From Bacteroidota bacterium (lineage in GTDB: Bacteria; Bacteroidota; Bacteroidia; Bacteroidales; Prolixibacteraceae), in contig JAUYMU010000063.1 of the NCBI GenBank assembly GCA_030698405.1, positions 1-36,232 of the forward strand: DNA of 36,232 bases, read 5' to 3'. The notes under the pieces were generated by a model. It made no database searches. It was not told where the DNA came from and saw only the letters and a list, made by a program, of their open reading frames with translations. Below are positions 2,419 through 15,656 of this stretch, piece by piece; positions within the stretch are counted from its first letter, which is position 1; every line of letters begins with the position of its first letter. The position numbers and the translations under genes are program-made.

Positions 2419-5400
2419 TTACCCTTCCACTATCTTAATTTCTTCCTCCGTCAATCCATAAAGCGCGTAAACCATTTGGTCTATTTCTTTGTCGGTGGTT
2501 TCTATCCTGATTTTTATGTCGGTTGCTTTTTTTGATTCCTGTAAAAAGTAATCCTCCCATTCTGCTTCTTCTGAAAGCGTGAGTTTCACTTTCTTTTTAC
2601 CCAACTCAGCGATCAGTTCTTTATACGATAGCAAATACCAGTTTTGCAGCTTGCCGGGTAATTCTTCCAAGGCAAATTTACGTTGAAGGGTGCGTTGGAA
2701 TTTCGAAGAAAGGGTTTGCAAATCGGATGTTAATTGGGTGCGTTCTGTTGCATATTGTGCAAGCCTTGCGGTCTGTTCTTCGTTTGCTTGCGGAACAGGA
2801 AAATGCTCGAAATAAACTTTGCGGATTTCGCGTGTCCCACCTTGAAGCTCTGGACAATTGTACCAAATCCAAAGCTTTGCCAATGAAGAGTTGAATACTG
2901 AAGTTAGATAGAGTAACGAAAACGAATCGTCATTAGCAGTTAGAATAAAGCTTTTATCGTTACTGAAAAATCCACTTTCGTCGTACATAAATGGGAAAAC
3001 CGAAGTCATATTTGGATAAATGATTTTTGGTTTAGAAAACTCTTCCAAATATGCACAATTACGCAAATTGTAAGGTGTGTTGCCTTTGTCTCCACGCTTT
3101 TCTAACATTGGGTAAAAGGCATCCAAATGTTTCTTTACTGCTGGGTAATCATTTATTATTATTGAAGATAGTGAATTCTTGCCTTTTACACCGTTATGTA
3201 CATTAATCAAAAACTCGCTGCCTAAATTGCTATACGCGGAAATATTTCTGCCACGAACCATTGGTTTAATCAGTTCTGAACTCTTATTATCAATAGCAAT
3301 CAGCTTTTGTCGCGTTTCTTCGTTTATAAAAAAAGCATCGTTAAAACCCGTTTTTATCCCATAGTTAATACTTATCGGCAAATCTTTTAATTTGATGCCA
3401 TTCAATTTCATCTGCTCCAACTTTTGTGCATCCTTATAAGGTTTTATACTCCATTCATCATCACCAAAATTAGAGGAAGAATATTCATAAATATTACTTT
3501 CTGTCTCGGTAAGAAAATCGCCATGATAGGTTTTCTGGTTGAGCGACAAGACTTTTACCTTATCTAACAGTTCGCTTTTTTGCGTAACAAAAATACAGAC
3601 ATAGGTAGTGGCTTCCTGGAAGAATTGTATATCGCCGAAGTTCAGCACTTGGCGCAAACCTGTTTTAGAAAGGAATTTACGAAGTGGTTTGCCGTATGCC
3701 ACCAACATCCATTTGTTGGGCATAATGAAGGATTGCATGCCACCATTCTTTAATAATTGATAACCACGTTCGGTAAAAATACAGTATAGGTCAGCTCCCT
3801 TATCGAATGTTTCGTAGCCGCAATTTTTGAGTATCTCACTCATTTCTCCCATGCTTTGTAGCTGCACATACGGCGGATTTCCGATCACTACATCAAAACC
3901 TCCTTTGTATTCCTCCCGGTAGGCATGGGCGATAGAACAAGGGTGCATGCTCGCGTGTTCGAGTGGAGGGAGTCCGTGCTTTATTCGGTTGTTTTTGATA
4001 TAGGCTATCGTATTCTCTAGCTGTTGCCCGGAGGTTATGAGATTACGACCAAATTTCTGCGTCCACAAATGTGCCTGGGTCGTGCCTCTTTGATATTCAG
4101 CTCCATCATCGTTCACCCATTCGAAATCGGATGCTACTGACGAGGGAGCATGCTCCCTCGTCAGAGCATGCTCCCTCGTCGGAGCATGCTCCCTCGTTTC
4201 GTCGGCAGTCGCGGTAGAATCCGGGATCGTCCGCCCCATCGCGATATTACAGGCACGGGCGCTCATACTCTTTATCTTCTGCACAATCTTTGGCAGTTCT
4301 TCGTCTTCGCACACAAGAATCAGGTGCATATGGTCGCCACAGATATTATAAGCCAGTATATTGAGATCGTCTTTTTGTGCAATATCGGCAATCGTTTCGG
4401 TTACTATTATTTCTTCTTTGGCCGACAACCACACTGGGACACCTAGTTTCACGTGATGATCGTACATCCGCTGCGAGTATCTCGAATTATGCGTTGCACA
4501 GGTAATGTGCCAGGTTTTTTTGAGCTTTATCTTGAATACCTGAGGGAATTCCTTTTGCCAGTTAAAGGCTTTGTCTCCGGCAATGGCGGGATCGTCGATC
4601 AATGAGTTTCCGCATTTGATATTGTTGTTCAGATCGTTTAGTTTACGGTTGGGTTGTGCGGTTCGCAACCACAAAGAGAGTTTTGCAATTTCAACACTTT
4701 CGTCATTTAAATCGACTCCAAACAAATTGTTTTCAAGGATGCTTTTTTCAATGTCGCTGAAAATGATGGGAACTCCAAAAAGCTTGGCTTTTAATTCATC
4801 AATGTACCGGTGTTCGGTAATCAGGAAGTCCAATGCCTGGTTTAAGAAAGCGCCTGATCCACAAGCGGGATCACAGATGGTCAATTGTATCAGCCAATTT
4901 TGATAGGTTTTCAACTTGTCGAGCAACGCCTGTTTGGTTTTCTTATGCAAGGGGGCATGCCTCAAGGGTGCATGCACACTTGTTGTTGTATATTCTTCTT
5001 CCTCAATCAGGAGTTCAGCCTTTTTATCTATACAGAGTTTGCCAATGGTGTTTTCAACAATGTATTTGGTAATGTATTTGGGCGTATAGAAAACCCCGTC
5101 CTTTTTACGTCTGGTTTGTGATTTGTCAACTGCCTGCCCCTCGAGTTGAGCTTTGATTTCATCCAGTTCATTGAGCGAATTCTCGAAGATGTGACCAAGG
5201 ATATTGACGTCCACTTCGCTTATAAAATCATATCCCGAAAGGGCCAGCGTATTCCGGTAGAGTAAATCATCGTCAATGGTAACCGTATCCAGCACTTCAT
5301 CGGGTTTAAACAATCCCCCGTTGTAGGCAAATACATCGTAACGCTTTCCTTTGAACCCGGTATTCAGGTATTCAAAGTATTTTTTAAACCGATTGTAGAG

Positions 5401-6258
5401 GGGAATTTCAACCTCACGGTCTTTTAAATCTTTCCAATCATTCAATATTAACCTCACCGAGTTGGGAGGCAATAACTGACGGTCTTCGGCAAAGAAGAGG
5501 AACAAGAACCTATCGAGTAACTTTTGCGACTTTTTGAATATGGTCAGCACATCGAATTGTGGGTTCTGAGCCACCAGGTTGTGGTGTAGTTCCCGTTTAA
5601 ACTGCGAATAATCCTTGTACAGCTTTTTGGTAATAATATCCTCGTGGCTAACGGATTCGGTTTTTACCGTTTTGGGAATCCCTTTTGCAATGTTCTCGTA
5701 CGACAAACACAAATAGAGCAGTTCAAAATTGCGTTTGCTAAGGGTAAACAAATTGAATTCGATGAACTCAATGGCATTGTCGATATAAAAACGAAGCTTT
5801 TCGAAGTTCGAAGTAATTACATACACACAATCTGCCTGATTGTTTTTGTATCCAAATGCCTGCGTTTCTATCTTGCTTAAATCTGTTGTATTGGTTCCTT
5901 TTAATTCTATAACCCCGACGACGCGGGAGTACGCGGCGGAGACTAGGGAGCCTGCTCTGACAAGGGAGCAGGCTCCCTTGTCAAGAATTGCTCCATCCGC
6001 TTTTTTGCTATCCTTCACGTTTTTGTATTCTGTGGTCAGGTTAAAGTTCGACGATGGATTAAGTGTATATCCCAGTATTTTAACAAATAACTCACGCAGA
6101 AAGCCTTCCTGAAACTGTTCTTCCTTGCTGTTTCGTATATTTTCCTGAATTTCCGGATTGCCAAAGTATGATTTAAACTCTGTGTATTTAGCATCGATAA
6201 GCTTCGCATCAAGCTGGTTGATATACTTCTGTTGTACTGAATTCTGGAAAAGGCTCAT
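2419..6258 (-). CDS. Type IIG restriction enzyme/adenine methyltransferase with an inserted RAYT domain
   Basis: A 1279-residue single-chain enzyme expected to methylate adenine-N6 and cut DNA near one recognition site. In order it shows: an N-terminal nuclease region with a PD-(D/E)XK signature (D88 in KKADGAIL, then E118 and K120 in VIELKG); a helical connector; SAM motif I DPACGSGAFL near 462-472; motif IV GNPPYVQ at 793-799; and a TaqI/Eco57I-like C-terminal target-recognition region (IKTGFNDAFF, KPMVRGRNI, QGGTREIRKVYFEHFPVP). Two abnormal things are visible. Residues 576-785 are a foreign HUH/Y1 transposase domain between FPQVF and GGFDVVIGNPPY, a junction that is normally almost continuous. 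Peptides encoded by short palindromes are present at 93-112, near 425-437, at 687-704 and near 762-770. The frame stays open throughout, so the enzyme may still work. Usual family length is about 1000-1050 residues. No separate specificity or nuclease subunit lies nearby. Confidence 0.88.
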   Translation of the reverse strand: MSLFQNSVQQKYINQLDAKLIDAKYTEFKSYFGNPEIQENIRNSKEEQFQEGFLRELFVKILGYTLNPSSNFNLTTEYKNVKDSKKADGAILDKGACSLVRAGSLVSAAYSRVVGVIELKGTNTTDLSKIETQAFGYKNNQADCVYVITSNFEKLRFYIDNAIEFIEFNLFTLSKRNFELLYLCLSYENIAKGIPKTVKTESVSHEDIITKKLYKDYSQFKRELHHNLVAQNPQFDVLTIFKKSQKLLDRFLFLFFAEDRQLLPPNSVRLILNDWKDLKDREVEIPLYNRFKKYFEYLNTGFKGKRYDVFAYNGGLFKPDEVLDTVTIDDDLLYRNTLALSGYDFISEVDVNILGHIFENSLNELDEIKAQLEGQAVDKSQTRRKKDGVFYTPKYITKYIVENTIGKLCIDKKAELLIEEEEYTTTSVHAPLRHAPLHKKTKQALLDKLKTYQNWLIQLTICDPACGSGAFLNQALDFLITEHRYIDELKAKLFGVPIIFSDIEKSILENNLFGVDLNDESVEIAKLSLWLRTAQPNRKLNDLNNNIKCGNSLIDDPAIAGDKAFNWQKEFPQVFKIKLKKTWHITCATHNSRYSQRMYDHHVKLGVPVWLSAKEEIIVTETIADIAQKDDLNILAYNICGDHMHLILVCEDEELPKIVQKIKSMSARACNIAMGRTIPDSTATADETREHAPTREHALTREHAPSSVASDFEWVNDDGAEYQRGTTQAHLWTQKFGRNLITSGQQLENTIAYIKNNRIKHGLPPLEHASMHPCSIAHAYREEYKGGFDVVIGNPPYVQLQSMGEMSEILKNCGYETFDKGADLYCIFTERGYQLLKNGGMQSFIMPNKWMLVAYGKPLRKFLSKTGLRQVLNFGDIQFFQEATTYVCIFVTQKSELLDKVKVLSLNQKTYHGDFLTETESNIYEYSSSNFGDDEWSIKPYKDAQKLEQMKLNGIKLKDLPISINYGIKTGFNDAFFINEETRQKLIAIDNKSSELIKPMVRGRNISAYSNLGSEFLINVHNGVKGKNSLSSIIINDYPAVKKHLDAFYPMLEKRGDKGNTPYNLRNCAYLEEFSKPKIIYPNMTSVFPFMYDESGFFSNDKSFILTANDDSFSLLYLTSVFNSSLAKLWIWYNCPELQGGTREIRKVYFEHFPVPQANEEQTARLAQYATERTQLTSDLQTLSSKFQRTLQRKFALEELPGKLQNWYLLSYKELIAELGKKKVKLTLSEEAEWEDYFLQESKKATDIKIRIETTDKEIDQMVYALYGLTEEEIKIVEG
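3938..3960. repeat. Degenerate GCATGC-core palindrome unit inside the restriction gene
   Basis: Contains CAAGGGTGCATGC (3938-3950), identical over 13 bases to 4963-4975. It encodes part of the peptide LEHASMHPCSIAHAYREEY at the end of the transposase insertion, just before the GGFDVVIGNPPY junction. Confidence 0.6.
4137..4199. repeat. REP-like palindrome with three tandem 18-bp units, in frame
   Basis: Bases 4137-4164 form a perfect 28-bp palindrome (left arm CTGACGAGGGAGCA). Three 18-bp units based on GAGCATGCTCCCTCGTC run at 4146-4163, 4164-4181 and 4182-4199. Because 18 is a multiple of three, they add TREHAP, TREHAL and TREHAP to the protein (residues 687-704) without shifting the frame. 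The same arm sequence recurs with small changes at 5958-5983. Confidence 0.9.
4951..4980. repeat. Two GCATGC-core palindrome units inside the restriction gene
   Basis: Two units, GGGGGCATGCCTC and AAGGGTGCATGCAC, sit side by side with cores at 4955-4960 and 4970-4975. They encode the extra peptide SVHAPLRHAPLH between EEEYTTT and KKTKQALLDKL, shortly before SAM motif I. The second unit shares 13 bases exactly with 3938-3950. Confidence 0.7.
5923..5983. repeat. REP-like palindrome in the nuclease domain coding region
   Basis: Bases 5958-5983 are an inverted repeat with perfect 12-base arms (TGACAAGGGAGC and its complement) around a 2-base centre AG. A half copy (AGGGAGCCTGCTC) precedes it at 5945-5957. 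On the minus strand the block encodes about 20 extra residues (93-112, CSLVRAGSLVS in the middle) between KKADGAIL and VVGVIELKG, that is, between the catalytic Asp and the Glu-x-Lys of the predicted nuclease. Confidence 0.85.
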
Positions 6259-6480
6259 AGTTGGTCAAGGTTGAAAAAAAGTGTGGGCAAGGTAGGATTT
6301 TTTTGTTTAACAGATGAATTAAAGAAGGGAAAAAGCCGAATGGTAAAACGTATTTAATGAAGAGAAAGCAAAGGACGCTGAAAGATCGGGAACCAGTGGA
6401 AATCTGGCAGCGCCCGAAGGTTTCCGACATGCCGGAACAAGCTCTGTTAGCGTTAAGTTGCTTAATGCAAACTGGAGTTC
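6259..6480. other. Gene-free stretch upstream of the restriction gene
   Basis: No gene is supported between the restriction gene start and the toxin remnant. Open frames crossing it on both strands have no recognisable motifs and overlap the remnant. A TACCTTGC box on the minus strand near 6276-6283, about 20-25 bases before the restriction start, is only a weak match to the TAnnTTTG promoter box. Confidence 0.5.
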
Positions 6481-6708
6481 TTATTTCCCAAAATATTCCA
6501 GAATCCGCTGTCTGTCTTCGTTTTCCTTGTCGCTTTTGTGGTAAAGTTCGATCAAGGTTATTCTTTGTTCTTCGCCGAAGTAAGCATAAACCAACCGCAA
6601 ACCCGAATTTACACCACGGCCTTTTAAAGCTTTGCAAGCTATTTTCCTGACTTTAATAATGCAACTTTCCTGACCCAAATTATCAATACGGAAGCTGGAT
6701 GGAGGCCT
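6481..6708 (-). pseudogene. RelE/ParE-family toxin remnant, 5' truncated
   Basis: The minus strand carries an open stretch from just inside a TAA at 6709-6711 to the TAA at 6481-6483. It reads FRIDNLGQESCIIKVRKIAC, then GVNSGLRLVYAYF, then ITLIELYHKSDKENEDRQRI. This is the typical second half of a Bacteroidota RelE/ParE-type toxin (mRNA interferase or gyrase-poison fold). The N-terminal 30-40 residues expected for the family are missing, there is no ATG in the frame (only a TTG at 6678), and no antitoxin gene is seen on either side. I read it as a decayed toxin-antitoxin locus next to the restriction gene. A shorter expressed protein from the TTG cannot be excluded. Confidence 0.65.
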
Positions 6709-15267: not shown

Positions 15268-15278
15268 GTATCATTTTT

Positions 15279-15356
15279 GGGTACCGCGATTTTCAATCGC
15301 GTTTTATTTATTTCGGAGATTAATCCGCCAACTGGCGGATCCGCACCCAAATGCCC
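15279..15356. repeat. 78-bp direct repeat, copy 1
   Basis: Begins GGGTACCGCGATTTTCAATC and contains two short inverted repeats, GCGATTTTCAATCGC and ATCCGCCAACTGGCGGAT. It differs from copy 2 at about four positions and lies exactly 300 bases before it. Confidence 0.9.
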
Positions 15357-15578
15357 TGCCAGTTTCTGTCGTTTTGGTTCCCAATCATGACAGGTTTTTA
15401 AAACCTGTGAGGATTAAAAACAATTTGCTGCGCAACGGATAAAAAAGCGATGCTTATCGTTTTGGAAAACGATGCGGCAAAGAATATAAGCGATGCGGCA
15501 AAGAATAAAAACAGACGGCATCGTTTTCAAGACCTCAAATTTGCTTGTAATAAAGCACCTGTTTGCGTTACTCGATTC
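15357..15578. other. Repeat-rich spacer between the 78-bp repeats
   Basis: No gene is supported. It holds a palindrome CAGGTTTTTAAAACCTG near 15390-15406, a tandem GCGATGCGGCAAAGAATA-type unit near 15470-15508, and inverted copies of CGATGC. These look like decayed mobile-element or REP fragments. Confidence 0.5.
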
Positions 15579-15656
15579 GGGTGCCGCGATTTTCAATCGC
15601 GTTTTATTTATCTCGGAGATTAATCCGCCAACTGGCGGATCCGCACCCATTTGCCC
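15579..15656. repeat. 78-bp direct repeat, copy 2
   Basis: Begins GGGTGCCGCGATTTTCAATC; same internal inverted repeats as copy 1. It ends about 60 bases before the MntA promoter box. Confidence 0.9.

What the first reader, a model, noticed from the sequence alone, without database searches (positions are those of the whole stretch)
3904..4533. A RAYT/HUH transposase domain lies inside a type IIG restriction-modification enzyme
Residues 576-785 read as a complete Y1 transposase domain (DHMHLIL, candidate tyrosine in AYIKNNRIKHG) placed exactly between FPQVF and GGFDVVIGNPPY, which normally adjoin. The frame is open on both sides, so it is a domain insertion, not a neighbouring gene. A nicking/ssDNA-processing domain beside the methyltransferase NPPY loop could give a new activity, or could be a tolerated passenger at a permissive surface loop. 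HUH and NPPY identities are established motifs; the functional idea is inference.
Basis: partly seen in the sequence, partly recalled or inferred. Interest (0 to 1): 0.82.

Follow-up and report, generated by a model that had tools for sequence, protein, structure and literature searches.

The report
Transposase domain nested in restriction enzyme
A gene for a bacterial defence enzyme carries, inside its own reading frame, a complete DNA-cutting transposase domain together with small DNA hairpins that resemble that transposase's usual targets; the arrangement recurs in many bacteria and appears to be a new way for such a transposase to live inside another gene.

Summary
Confirmed. The ORF at 2419-6258(-) is a type IIG restriction-modification (RM) enzyme with a RAYT/Y1 HUH domain (residues 576-785) in frame between FPQVF and GGFDVVIGNPPY. 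It is not unique: of 80 related loci kept, 76 have the domain in frame behind the same RM half, at the same junction; 69 also run on into the other half. The cassette comes and goes at this site and moves between RM backbones. Covarying hairpins (AACAAGGGGNCATGNCCCCTTGTC) sit in frame in the same genes: 45 of 65 RAYT+ RM genes, 2 of 44 without RAYT. Hairpins of this type number 102 inside these ORFs and 0 in 351 kb around them; two loci with another hairpin type have it outside too. Standalone RAYTs with RM scars occur. Separate nestings were met in RecG, a DUF1156 protein and other IIG enzymes. Best reading: a 'REPtron' living inside an RM gene, acting on hairpins of its own gene. Anatomy is shown; activity is inferred. 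REPs inside genes, RAYT genes included, are known; a RAYT nested in an enzyme was not in the open-access search listings seen.

The parts
2419..6258 (-). Type IIG restriction-modification gene (Eco57I/TaqI_C type) with nested RAYT domain, 1279 aa
   Evidence: model of residues 87-1279 matches CamA, M.BseCI, PglX/BrxX, MmeI (pLDDT 75, pTM 0.47)
5899..5997 (-). PD-(D/E)XK-like nuclease motif, D88 ... E118-L119-K120, with a hairpin pair between D and ExK
   Evidence: these residues are invariant in 40 aligned proteins; the motif name is recalled
5944..5983 (-). REP-like palindromic pair, reads DKGACSLVRAGSLV in frame
   Evidence: DNA fold of 5944-5990 -16.3 kcal/mol, z -5.7; families D3/D4
4947..4984 (-). 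Degenerate REP-like relics, read TSVHAPLRHAPLHK
   Evidence: D3; fold z -1.3, so decayed
4846..4872 (-). Methyltransferase motif I, DPACGSGAF
   Evidence: invariant in 40 proteins
3904..4533 (-). Nested RAYT/Y1 HUH transposase domain, residues 576-785
4324..4335 (-). HUH motif D642-H643-M644-H645
   Evidence: D, H and H invariant in 22 and 56 inserts
4137..4199 (-). Three tandem REP-like palindromic units (TREHAPTREHALTREHAP) between HUH and Tyr; includes the perfect 28-nt palindrome 4137-4164
   Evidence: fold of 4134-4202 -24.7 kcal/mol, z -6.9
4000..4002 (-). Catalytic tyrosine Y753 in AYIKNNRIKHG
   Evidence: invariant; catalytic role inferred from the family
3938..3959 (-). Degenerate REP-like relic near the end of the RAYT domain
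   Evidence: D3; no hairpin signal by itself
3868..3879 (-). Methyltransferase motif IV, NPPY
   Evidence: invariant in 40 proteins
2794..3264 (-). TaqI_C-like target-recognition domain, residues 999-1155
   Evidence: PF12950, 1.4e-10

Best explanation
A nested REPtron. A RAYT (REP-associated tyrosine transposase) entered a permissive surface loop of a type IIG RM gene and is now made as part of the RM polypeptide. Its HUH/Tyr site most likely cleaves and rejoins single-stranded hairpins (REP-like palindromes) exposed in its own gene during replication, so that copies settle in frame in tolerated loops of the same gene. The RM gene gives expression, horizontal spread and probably addiction-type retention; the RAYT travels as a cassette that is gained, lost and swapped at this one site. 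Shown: in-frame fusion, conserved active-site residues of nuclease, methyltransferase and HUH, predicted fold, hairpin covariation, strong association of the hairpins with RAYT-bearing RM genes, cassette gain/loss and exchange, standalone derivatives. Inferred: nicking and joining of these hairpins, seeding in cis, retention by the RM.
For: In-frame fusion and fold. Same junction in 76 of 80 loci, 69 with RM on both sides. HUH in 80 of 80; the Tyr motif in 75 of 80, four of the five misses cut by contig ends or Ns. Median omega 0.21 for RAYT (121 pairs) and 0.11 for the RM N-term where defined. Strong palindromes in 45 of 65 RAYT+ RM genes (96; codon-shuffled 0.8) against 2 of 44 RAYT- genes, Fisher 2e-12. 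Palindromes of the main type: 102 inside these ORFs (230 kb), 0 outside (351 kb). In L050, hairpins of that locus's own type lie on both sides of the gene, as in a classical REPtron. Covariation at stem positions 4, 7, 8, 9: 62-72 of 102 paired against 33-41 expected. Asymmetric element AA-CAAGGG...CCCTTG-TC, mostly in one orientation: A at -2 in 75 of 91, C at +2 in 73 of 91. RAYT presence needs 19 changes on the RM N-term tree. Flank-conserving gain/loss, L044 against L097. RAYT-only transfer: L182/L188, RAYT dS 0.45, RM N-term dS saturated. Standalone RAYTs fall inside the embedded clade; two begin with what by eye is an RM N-terminal scar (L169, L202).
Against: No activity is shown. The hairpins lack the GT[AG]G foot of classical REPs (3 of 91 have one). 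Movement of the cassette could be plain homologous recombination between conserved flanks. Perfect palindromes could partly be made by template-switch correction. In 20 of 65 RAYT+ genes no strong palindrome was detected (the G+C filter misses some, e.g. L109). The substrings that define the main type were taken from the elements inside the genes. In G683 and G776 the same palindrome lies only outside RM/RAYT ORFs (9 sites; 11 of 34 sites in all). G012 and G019 have palindromes in RM genes but no RAYT hit. Covariation is weaker at positions 6 and 10-12 and for other cores. 80 of 95 palindromes share one reading frame, so many may be copies or filtered by protein constraint. Some copies look broken: L042 (G048) changes frame within the RAYT, L040 (G076) within a palindrome, and L166, L203 and L224 are short ORFs away from contig ends.
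Confidence: 0.6

Rival explanations
1. Co-opted working part of the RM enzyme: the HUH domain processes single-stranded or replicating foreign DNA, or helps RM genes exchange specificity modules, and the hairpins are its substrates or regulators.
For: HUH/Tyr kept and purifying selection; one fixed junction in several phyla (titles); RM genes are mosaics: RAYT identity is nearly uncorrelated with N-term or C-term identity.
Against: RAYT is absent from many close RM homologues that read through. Standalone RAYTs persist without an RM. With equal sampling the N-C correlation is the same with and without RAYT (0.44, n=19; 0.47, n=31), so no sign that RAYT promotes shuffling.
Confidence: 0.17
2. 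Intein-like homing cassette: the HUH nuclease itself brings the RAYT into empty RM alleles at the cognate site.
For: Fixed junction; presence/absence with both flanks conserved (L044/L097, window/L087); 19 changes on the RM tree, 14 forced by starred branches; RAYT exchanged without flanks (L037/L044: N 86%, C 84%, RAYT core 55%).
Against: By eye no hairpin or direct repeat at the junctions printed (45-60 nt on each side); homologous recombination in the conserved FNWxxEFP and GGFDVVIGNPPY flanks is enough; the hairpins lie elsewhere in the gene.
Confidence: 0.13
3. Inert passenger: an insertion at a tolerated loop, inherited and decaying; palindromes are accidental loop sequence.
For: Loop is permissive: other inserts fill it; two of four hairpin sites in the window have decayed; RAYT omega is about twice that of the RM; some copies look broken.
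Against: HUH in 80 of 80 loci; palindromes 96 against 0.8 after codon shuffling and covarying; repeated gain/loss; standalone survival.
Confidence: 0.08
4. Assembly or annotation artefact joining two genes.
For: Most relatives are metagenome-assembled (record titles).
Against: Same junction in 76 of 80 loci, isolates among them by record title (Tangfeifania diversioriginum DSM 27063, L167; Flavobacterium psychrotolerans RB1R5, L229).
Confidence: 0.01

Closest known systems
TnpA-REP/RAYT subclass 2.4 (Quentin et al. 2018, PMC6006769; abstract, outline and passages seen)
   Same: HUH + single Tyr; hairpins inserted in frame in the transposase gene between HuH and Y without breaking the frame; listed from Bacteroidetes.
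   Different: Here the transposase is a domain inside an RM enzyme and the hairpins also sit in the host's coding loops; motifs are DH[MLIAV]H and YIxNNRxKH rather than NH[IFV]H and YIxNNP; no GT[AG]G foot. That study discarded unexpectedly long proteins as fusions or annotation errors.
Intragenic GTAG and CGTC REPs (De Nocera et al. 2013, PMC3733652; passages and the section on genome distribution seen)
   Same: Short palindromes translated in frame, many in DNA replication and repair genes; the CGTC class was found in Bacteroidetes and Chlorobi; the window's central palindrome ends in CTCGTC.
   [quoted passage not shown] our common element ends TTGTC, and whether it is a CGTC REP was not settled.
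Type IIG RM enzymes (PADLOC PDLC03609; Eco57I/TaqI_C)
   Same: Nuclease-like motif, adenine-methyltransferase motifs I and IV and target-recognition domain in one chain, conserved.
   Different: An extra HUH domain between motifs I and IV.
IS200/IS605 elements
   Different: One match in this genome, not free-standing; tnpB and element ends were not looked for.
Inteins and homing endonucleases (recalled)
   Same: Coding unit at a fixed conserved site of a DNA enzyme, patchy presence.
   Different: No splicing expected; the domain stays in the protein.

Membership tests
RAYT / TnpA-REP | HUH motif | tested here: met
   D642-H643-M-H645; invariant in 22 and 56 inserts; 80 of 80 loci
RAYT / TnpA-REP | single catalytic Tyr after the HUH | tested here: met
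   Y753, invariant; Y motif in 75 of 80 loci, 4 of the 5 misses cut or N
RAYT / TnpA-REP | Y1 transposase fold | tested here: met
RAYT / TnpA-REP | sequence family models | tested here: inconclusive
   PF01797 over cut-off; NF047646 2.5e-14 but 53 of 80 bits required
RAYT / TnpA-REP | associated REP hairpins | tested here: met
   mostly in the gene rather than flanking it; flanking as well in L050
RAYT / TnpA-REP | GT[AG]G foot of classical REPs | tested here: not met
   3 of 91 elements; so not a classical GTAG REP system
RAYT subclass 2.4 | motifs NH[IFV]H and YIxNNP | tested here: not met
   DH[MLIAV]H and YIxNNRxKH against Table 1 of PMC6006769
RAYT / TnpA-REP | ssDNA hairpin cleavage | not testable with these tools
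   needs protein
Type IIG RM | nuclease, methyltransferase and TRD in one chain | tested here: met
Type IIG RM | restriction and methylation activity | not testable with these tools
   no methylome or enzyme
IS200/IS605 insertion sequence | multiple near-identical mobile copies | tested here: not met
   one match of the insert in G000
IS200/IS605 insertion sequence | tnpB and subterminal end hairpins | not tested
   not looked for
Intein / homing element | self-removal from the protein | not testable with these tools
   not examined; a HUH domain is not a splicing domain (recalled)

The most novel reading that the evidence does not exclude
In-frame nesting inside DNA enzymes is a general life style of RAYTs: a transposase hides as a domain of a retained DNA-metabolism protein (type IIG RM enzymes, a DUF1156 protein, RecG), works on hairpins it plants in its host's own gene, and homes as a cassette into empty alleles, a splicing-free counterpart of inteins.
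Probability: 0.3. Interest if true: 0.92.

Novelty: new variant of a known kind. Interest (0 to 1): 0.77.

Why it matters
How RAYTs persist and move is open. Here a RAYT clade lives inside a widespread defence gene whose spread and retention can carry it, and its presumed substrates sit in the same gene, so substrate, enzyme and host can be tested in one construct. It may offer a transposase partner for a class of palindromes that had none in an earlier survey, puts three sets of conserved active-site residues in one polypeptide, and, with separate cases in RecG and a DUF1156 protein, points to a mode of domain acquisition that length filters in family surveys remove.

Tried and rejected
Frame-shift or gene-junction artefact in the window: rejected. 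Viral, phage or plasmid carriage: no match in viral contigs (182 stretches matched a pattern, none confirmed), 72,556 plasmids or 50,697 phages. Known RNA families and tRNAs in the window: none. RAYT drives exchange of the C-terminal specificity half: a first comparison suggested a lower N-C correlation in RAYT+ genes (0.23 against 0.48; 42 of 57 RAYT+ and 31 of 38 RAYT- rows kept after length filters and removal of distant rows), but with equal sampling it vanished (0.44, n=19, against 0.47, n=31). Classical GTAG REP: rejected. RAYT in G000 as a multicopy IS: rejected. Literature: the listings (each capped; the broader ones had hundreds to thousands of hits) show no paper on a RAYT or Y1 domain inside an RM enzyme, RecG or a DUF1156 protein; subscription journals and preprint servers are not held and supplements were not read. 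The long model has pTM 0.47, so the placing of the RAYT relative to the methyltransferase was not used. Rows not read: six of the 60 stretches did not fit the pattern (L083, L117, L118, L128, L131, L134); near-duplicates were dropped before the counts. An earlier count said 36 sites; the recount is 34.

Full report

RECURRENCE. The insert was sought in 101 genomes near the window's: 14 have it, 13 in ORFs of 569-1341 aa and one (G086) in a 156-aa ORF. The RM N-terminal half was sought in 199 genomes: 108 have a match, many of them weak. I fetched 15 stretches with insert matches and 60 RM stretches and classified those that fitted a pattern. The loop between FPxVF and GGFDVV holds 2 residues, another insert of up to ~75 residues, or the RAYT. 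A scan of one genome for each of 84,980 species found 146 relatives and kept 80. All 76 with RM sequence upstream have the FxxIF junction 25-35 residues after the GNSL motif, 71 at exactly 26; 69 run on into RM sequence downstream (67 by a stricter pattern), 5 are cut by contig ends and 2 run into Ns. 45 are complete ORFs of at least 1100 aa; 5 are shorter though not at a contig end (826-1091 aa). Four of the 80 have no RM upstream: three standalone and one cut at its 5' end. By record title they are mostly Bacteroidota, with Chlorobiota, Ignavibacteria, Melioribacteraceae, Cloacimonadota, Neomarinimicrobiota and one gammaproteobacterial MAG (most are MAGs, so single assignments are unsure). 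No relative was found in viral contigs, phages or plasmids. In 395 genomes of the phylum, 59 have some match; besides the window's own genome five are strong and in long ORFs, and in these the RM and the site are the same; the others are weak, mostly to short ORFs.

CONSERVATION. D67, H68, H70, W157 and Y178 of the insert are invariant in 22 and again in 56 aligned inserts. In 40 aligned proteins the nuclease residues D and ELK, DPACGSGAF, NPPY, and the HUH and Tyr are invariant (the set was chosen among long, complete ORFs). Pairwise omega has a median of 0.21 for RAYT over 121 pairs and 0.11 for the RM N-term where it could be computed. Not every copy is intact: in G048 the frame changes within the RAYT (L042), in G076 within a palindrome near residue 100 (L040), and the ORF of G086 lacks the Tyr motif (L047).

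HAIRPINS. The window gene has four places with one palindrome family. Two are strong (4137-4199, z -6.9; 5944-5983, z -5.7) and two decayed. GAGGGAGCATGCTC with up to one mismatch occurs in this 5.49-Mb genome only in the central cluster of this gene. Over 101 genomes RGGRGCATGCYCCY has 34 sites against 3 for the reversed control. Placing them lie in type IIG genes, two of these in a distant type IIG group of G076, and 8 elsewhere. By genome, 10 of 14 RAYT+ (in G100 the only site is outside the RM gene) and 7 of 87 RAYT- genomes have the core (Fisher 7.5e-7). By gene, 45 of 65 RAYT+ RM genes hold a strong G+C-rich palindrome (96 in all; 0.8 after codon shuffling), against 2 of 44 RAYT- genes. 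The two sets were sampled differently; within the window's relatives alone I count 18 of 22 RAYT+ from the same listing. Palindromes of the main type number 102 inside these ORFs and 0 in 351 kb around them; 19 others lie outside. Of these 19, four at L050 and one at L215 are of the GGGTT(NA)CCC type, the type that L050 also carries in its gene; in L050 they lie on both sides of the gene, a classical REPtron layout. Starting from the bare core GCATGC, so without choosing perfect stems, positions 4, 7, 8 and 9 pair in 62-72 of 102 distinct sites against 33-41 expected; positions 6 and 10-12 and the other cores give less. The element is asymmetric, AA-CAAGGG(N8)CCCTTG-TC, mostly in one orientation on the coding strand, and 3 of 91 have a GT[AG]G foot. 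Of 95 palindromes 80 are read in the frame TRGHAPL/EHAPL; 55 lie in the RAYT part, 23 before it in the methyltransferase half, 11 in the N-terminal part and 6 near the C-terminus. The longer palindrome CAAGGGGNCATGNCCCCTTG was sought in 295 genomes of the order: 15 have it, at 34 sites, with no control hit. 23 of the 34 lie in RM or RAYT ORFs (one a type ISP enzyme, one a distant type IIG) and 11 elsewhere: six in G683, three in G776, one each in G184 and G594, which fits a mobile element.

CASSETTE BEHAVIOUR. On the N-terminal RM tree (95 genes, quick method) RAYT presence needs 19 changes, 14 forced by starred branches. Close relatives differ by the cassette: L044 and L097 match at 27 of 30 bases in the two windows upstream of the site and 26 of 30 in the two downstream. 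RAYT identity is almost uncorrelated with N-term (0.07) or C-term (0.01) identity over 1596 non-independent pairs. L182 and L188 share a young RAYT (dS 0.45) on RM halves whose dS is saturated. The 62 embedded and standalone domains form one clade far from eight other RAYTs. The five standalone rows fall inside it and need four changes; the rooting within the clade is unsure because the outgroup is distant. Two begin, by eye, with an RM N-terminal scar: MSLFQESG in L169 and 25 residues in L202, so the RAYT seems to have outlived its RM host there. G012 and G019 keep palindromes in RM genes with no RAYT hit.

FURTHER NESTINGS. L323 (G241) is a 1260-aa DUF1156 protein with a different Y1 domain (NHVH, YIENNP) and in-frame repeat peptides along the host, beside an SNF2-type helicase gene. 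L353 and L354 (G817, G819) are RecG with a Y1 domain between DEQHRFG and SATPIPR, bordered by AQTFLSV and QTRMSV peptides; in G480 the same gene lies in two contig pieces (L360, L352). The five other genomes of that genus searched (G472, G815, G825, G822, G538) have 39-89 residues between the motifs instead of 249-277. L351 is a type IIG enzyme with a Y1 domain before motif I, and L355 a different type IIG enzyme with a related RAYT (33.8% identity at best) before NPPY. These were met by chance in two searches and are not a census.

MECHANISM AND RIVALS. I favour the nested REPtron (0.6). The hairpins' association with the fusion, their covariation and asymmetry, the flanking hairpins of L050 and survival of the RAYT without its RM argue for activity on DNA rather than for a part of the RM. 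Against it: no activity is shown, some copies are broken, and recombination could move the cassette. A role in RM function (0.17), homing (0.13) and an inert passenger (0.08) remain. A test of RAYT-driven module shuffling was negative once sampling was equal.

KNOWN OR NEW. In-frame REPs within tnpA-REP genes are described for subclass 2.4, in a study where unexpectedly long proteins were discarded (PMC6006769; abstract, outline and passages). REPs inside DNA-repair genes, and CGTC REPs without a known transposase, are described in PMC3733652 (passages and section 15). The other papers were seen only as search listings. None of the listings shows a RAYT inside an enzyme. Hence: new variant of a known kind.

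Noticed in passing
L323:438-4217 (-), genome G241: DUF1156 protein with an independent Y1 domain inserted in frame and repeat peptides (ISGKDAGAPSA, GSAAFQAA) along the host; the next gene is an SNF2/helicase with a NO VEIN C-terminus.
   Followed up: partly
L353:2483-5662 (-), L354:2489-5479 (+), L352:3-1556 (+): RecG helicase with a Y1 transposase domain between motifs II and III, bordered by AQTFLSV and QTRMSV repeat peptides, in 3 of 8 genomes of one genus (one of the three in two contig pieces).
   Followed up: partly
L351:968-3766 (-); L355:94-3105 (-): Two more type IIG enzymes with Y1 domains, one before motif I, one before NPPY.
   Followed up: partly
L050:1880-2331 and 6215-6260; L215:3975-4030: Hairpins of the GGGTT(NA)CCC type outside the RM gene, in L050 on both sides of it; three of the four L050 copies are followed by TCCAATAAG.
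   Followed up: partly
L040 near 2297; L042 near 4134-4527: Two RAYT-RM genes whose frame is broken at or near palindromes; real breaks or assembly errors not decided.
   Followed up: no
L313:3593 and 5450; L316:3179 and 5335 (genome G683): The TRGHAPL palindrome in repeated non-RM genes, in one case in SGDGRYDIML...VVIEIKQ, again between D and ExK of what looks like a nuclease motif.
   Followed up: no
L329:1328-2038 (-), own genome contig 43: Another RAYT-like ORF with a duplicated in-frame peptide TPSATQSRARS between HUH and the C-terminal part.
   Followed up: no
L088 and L081, L084-L086, L089-L092: About 73 other residues, helix-like by eye, fill the same RM loop where others carry RAYT, including the paralogue in the window's own genome.
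   Followed up: partly
window 6481-6708 (-): Short ORF upstream of the RM gene that looks like the C-terminal part of a RelE/HigB-type toxin (recalled, not tested).
   Followed up: no
L037:4667-4690; L046, L109: Palindromes with other cores (TTATAA, GTTAAC, ATTAAT) in some RAYT+ RM genes: hairpin sequence may follow RAYT subtype.
   Followed up: no
window 15276-15356 and 15576-15656: Two 81-bp direct repeats, 94% identical, 300 bp apart.
   Followed up: no
L184: RAYT-RM in a MAG titled Gammaproteobacteria; transfer or mis-binning not decided.
   Followed up: no
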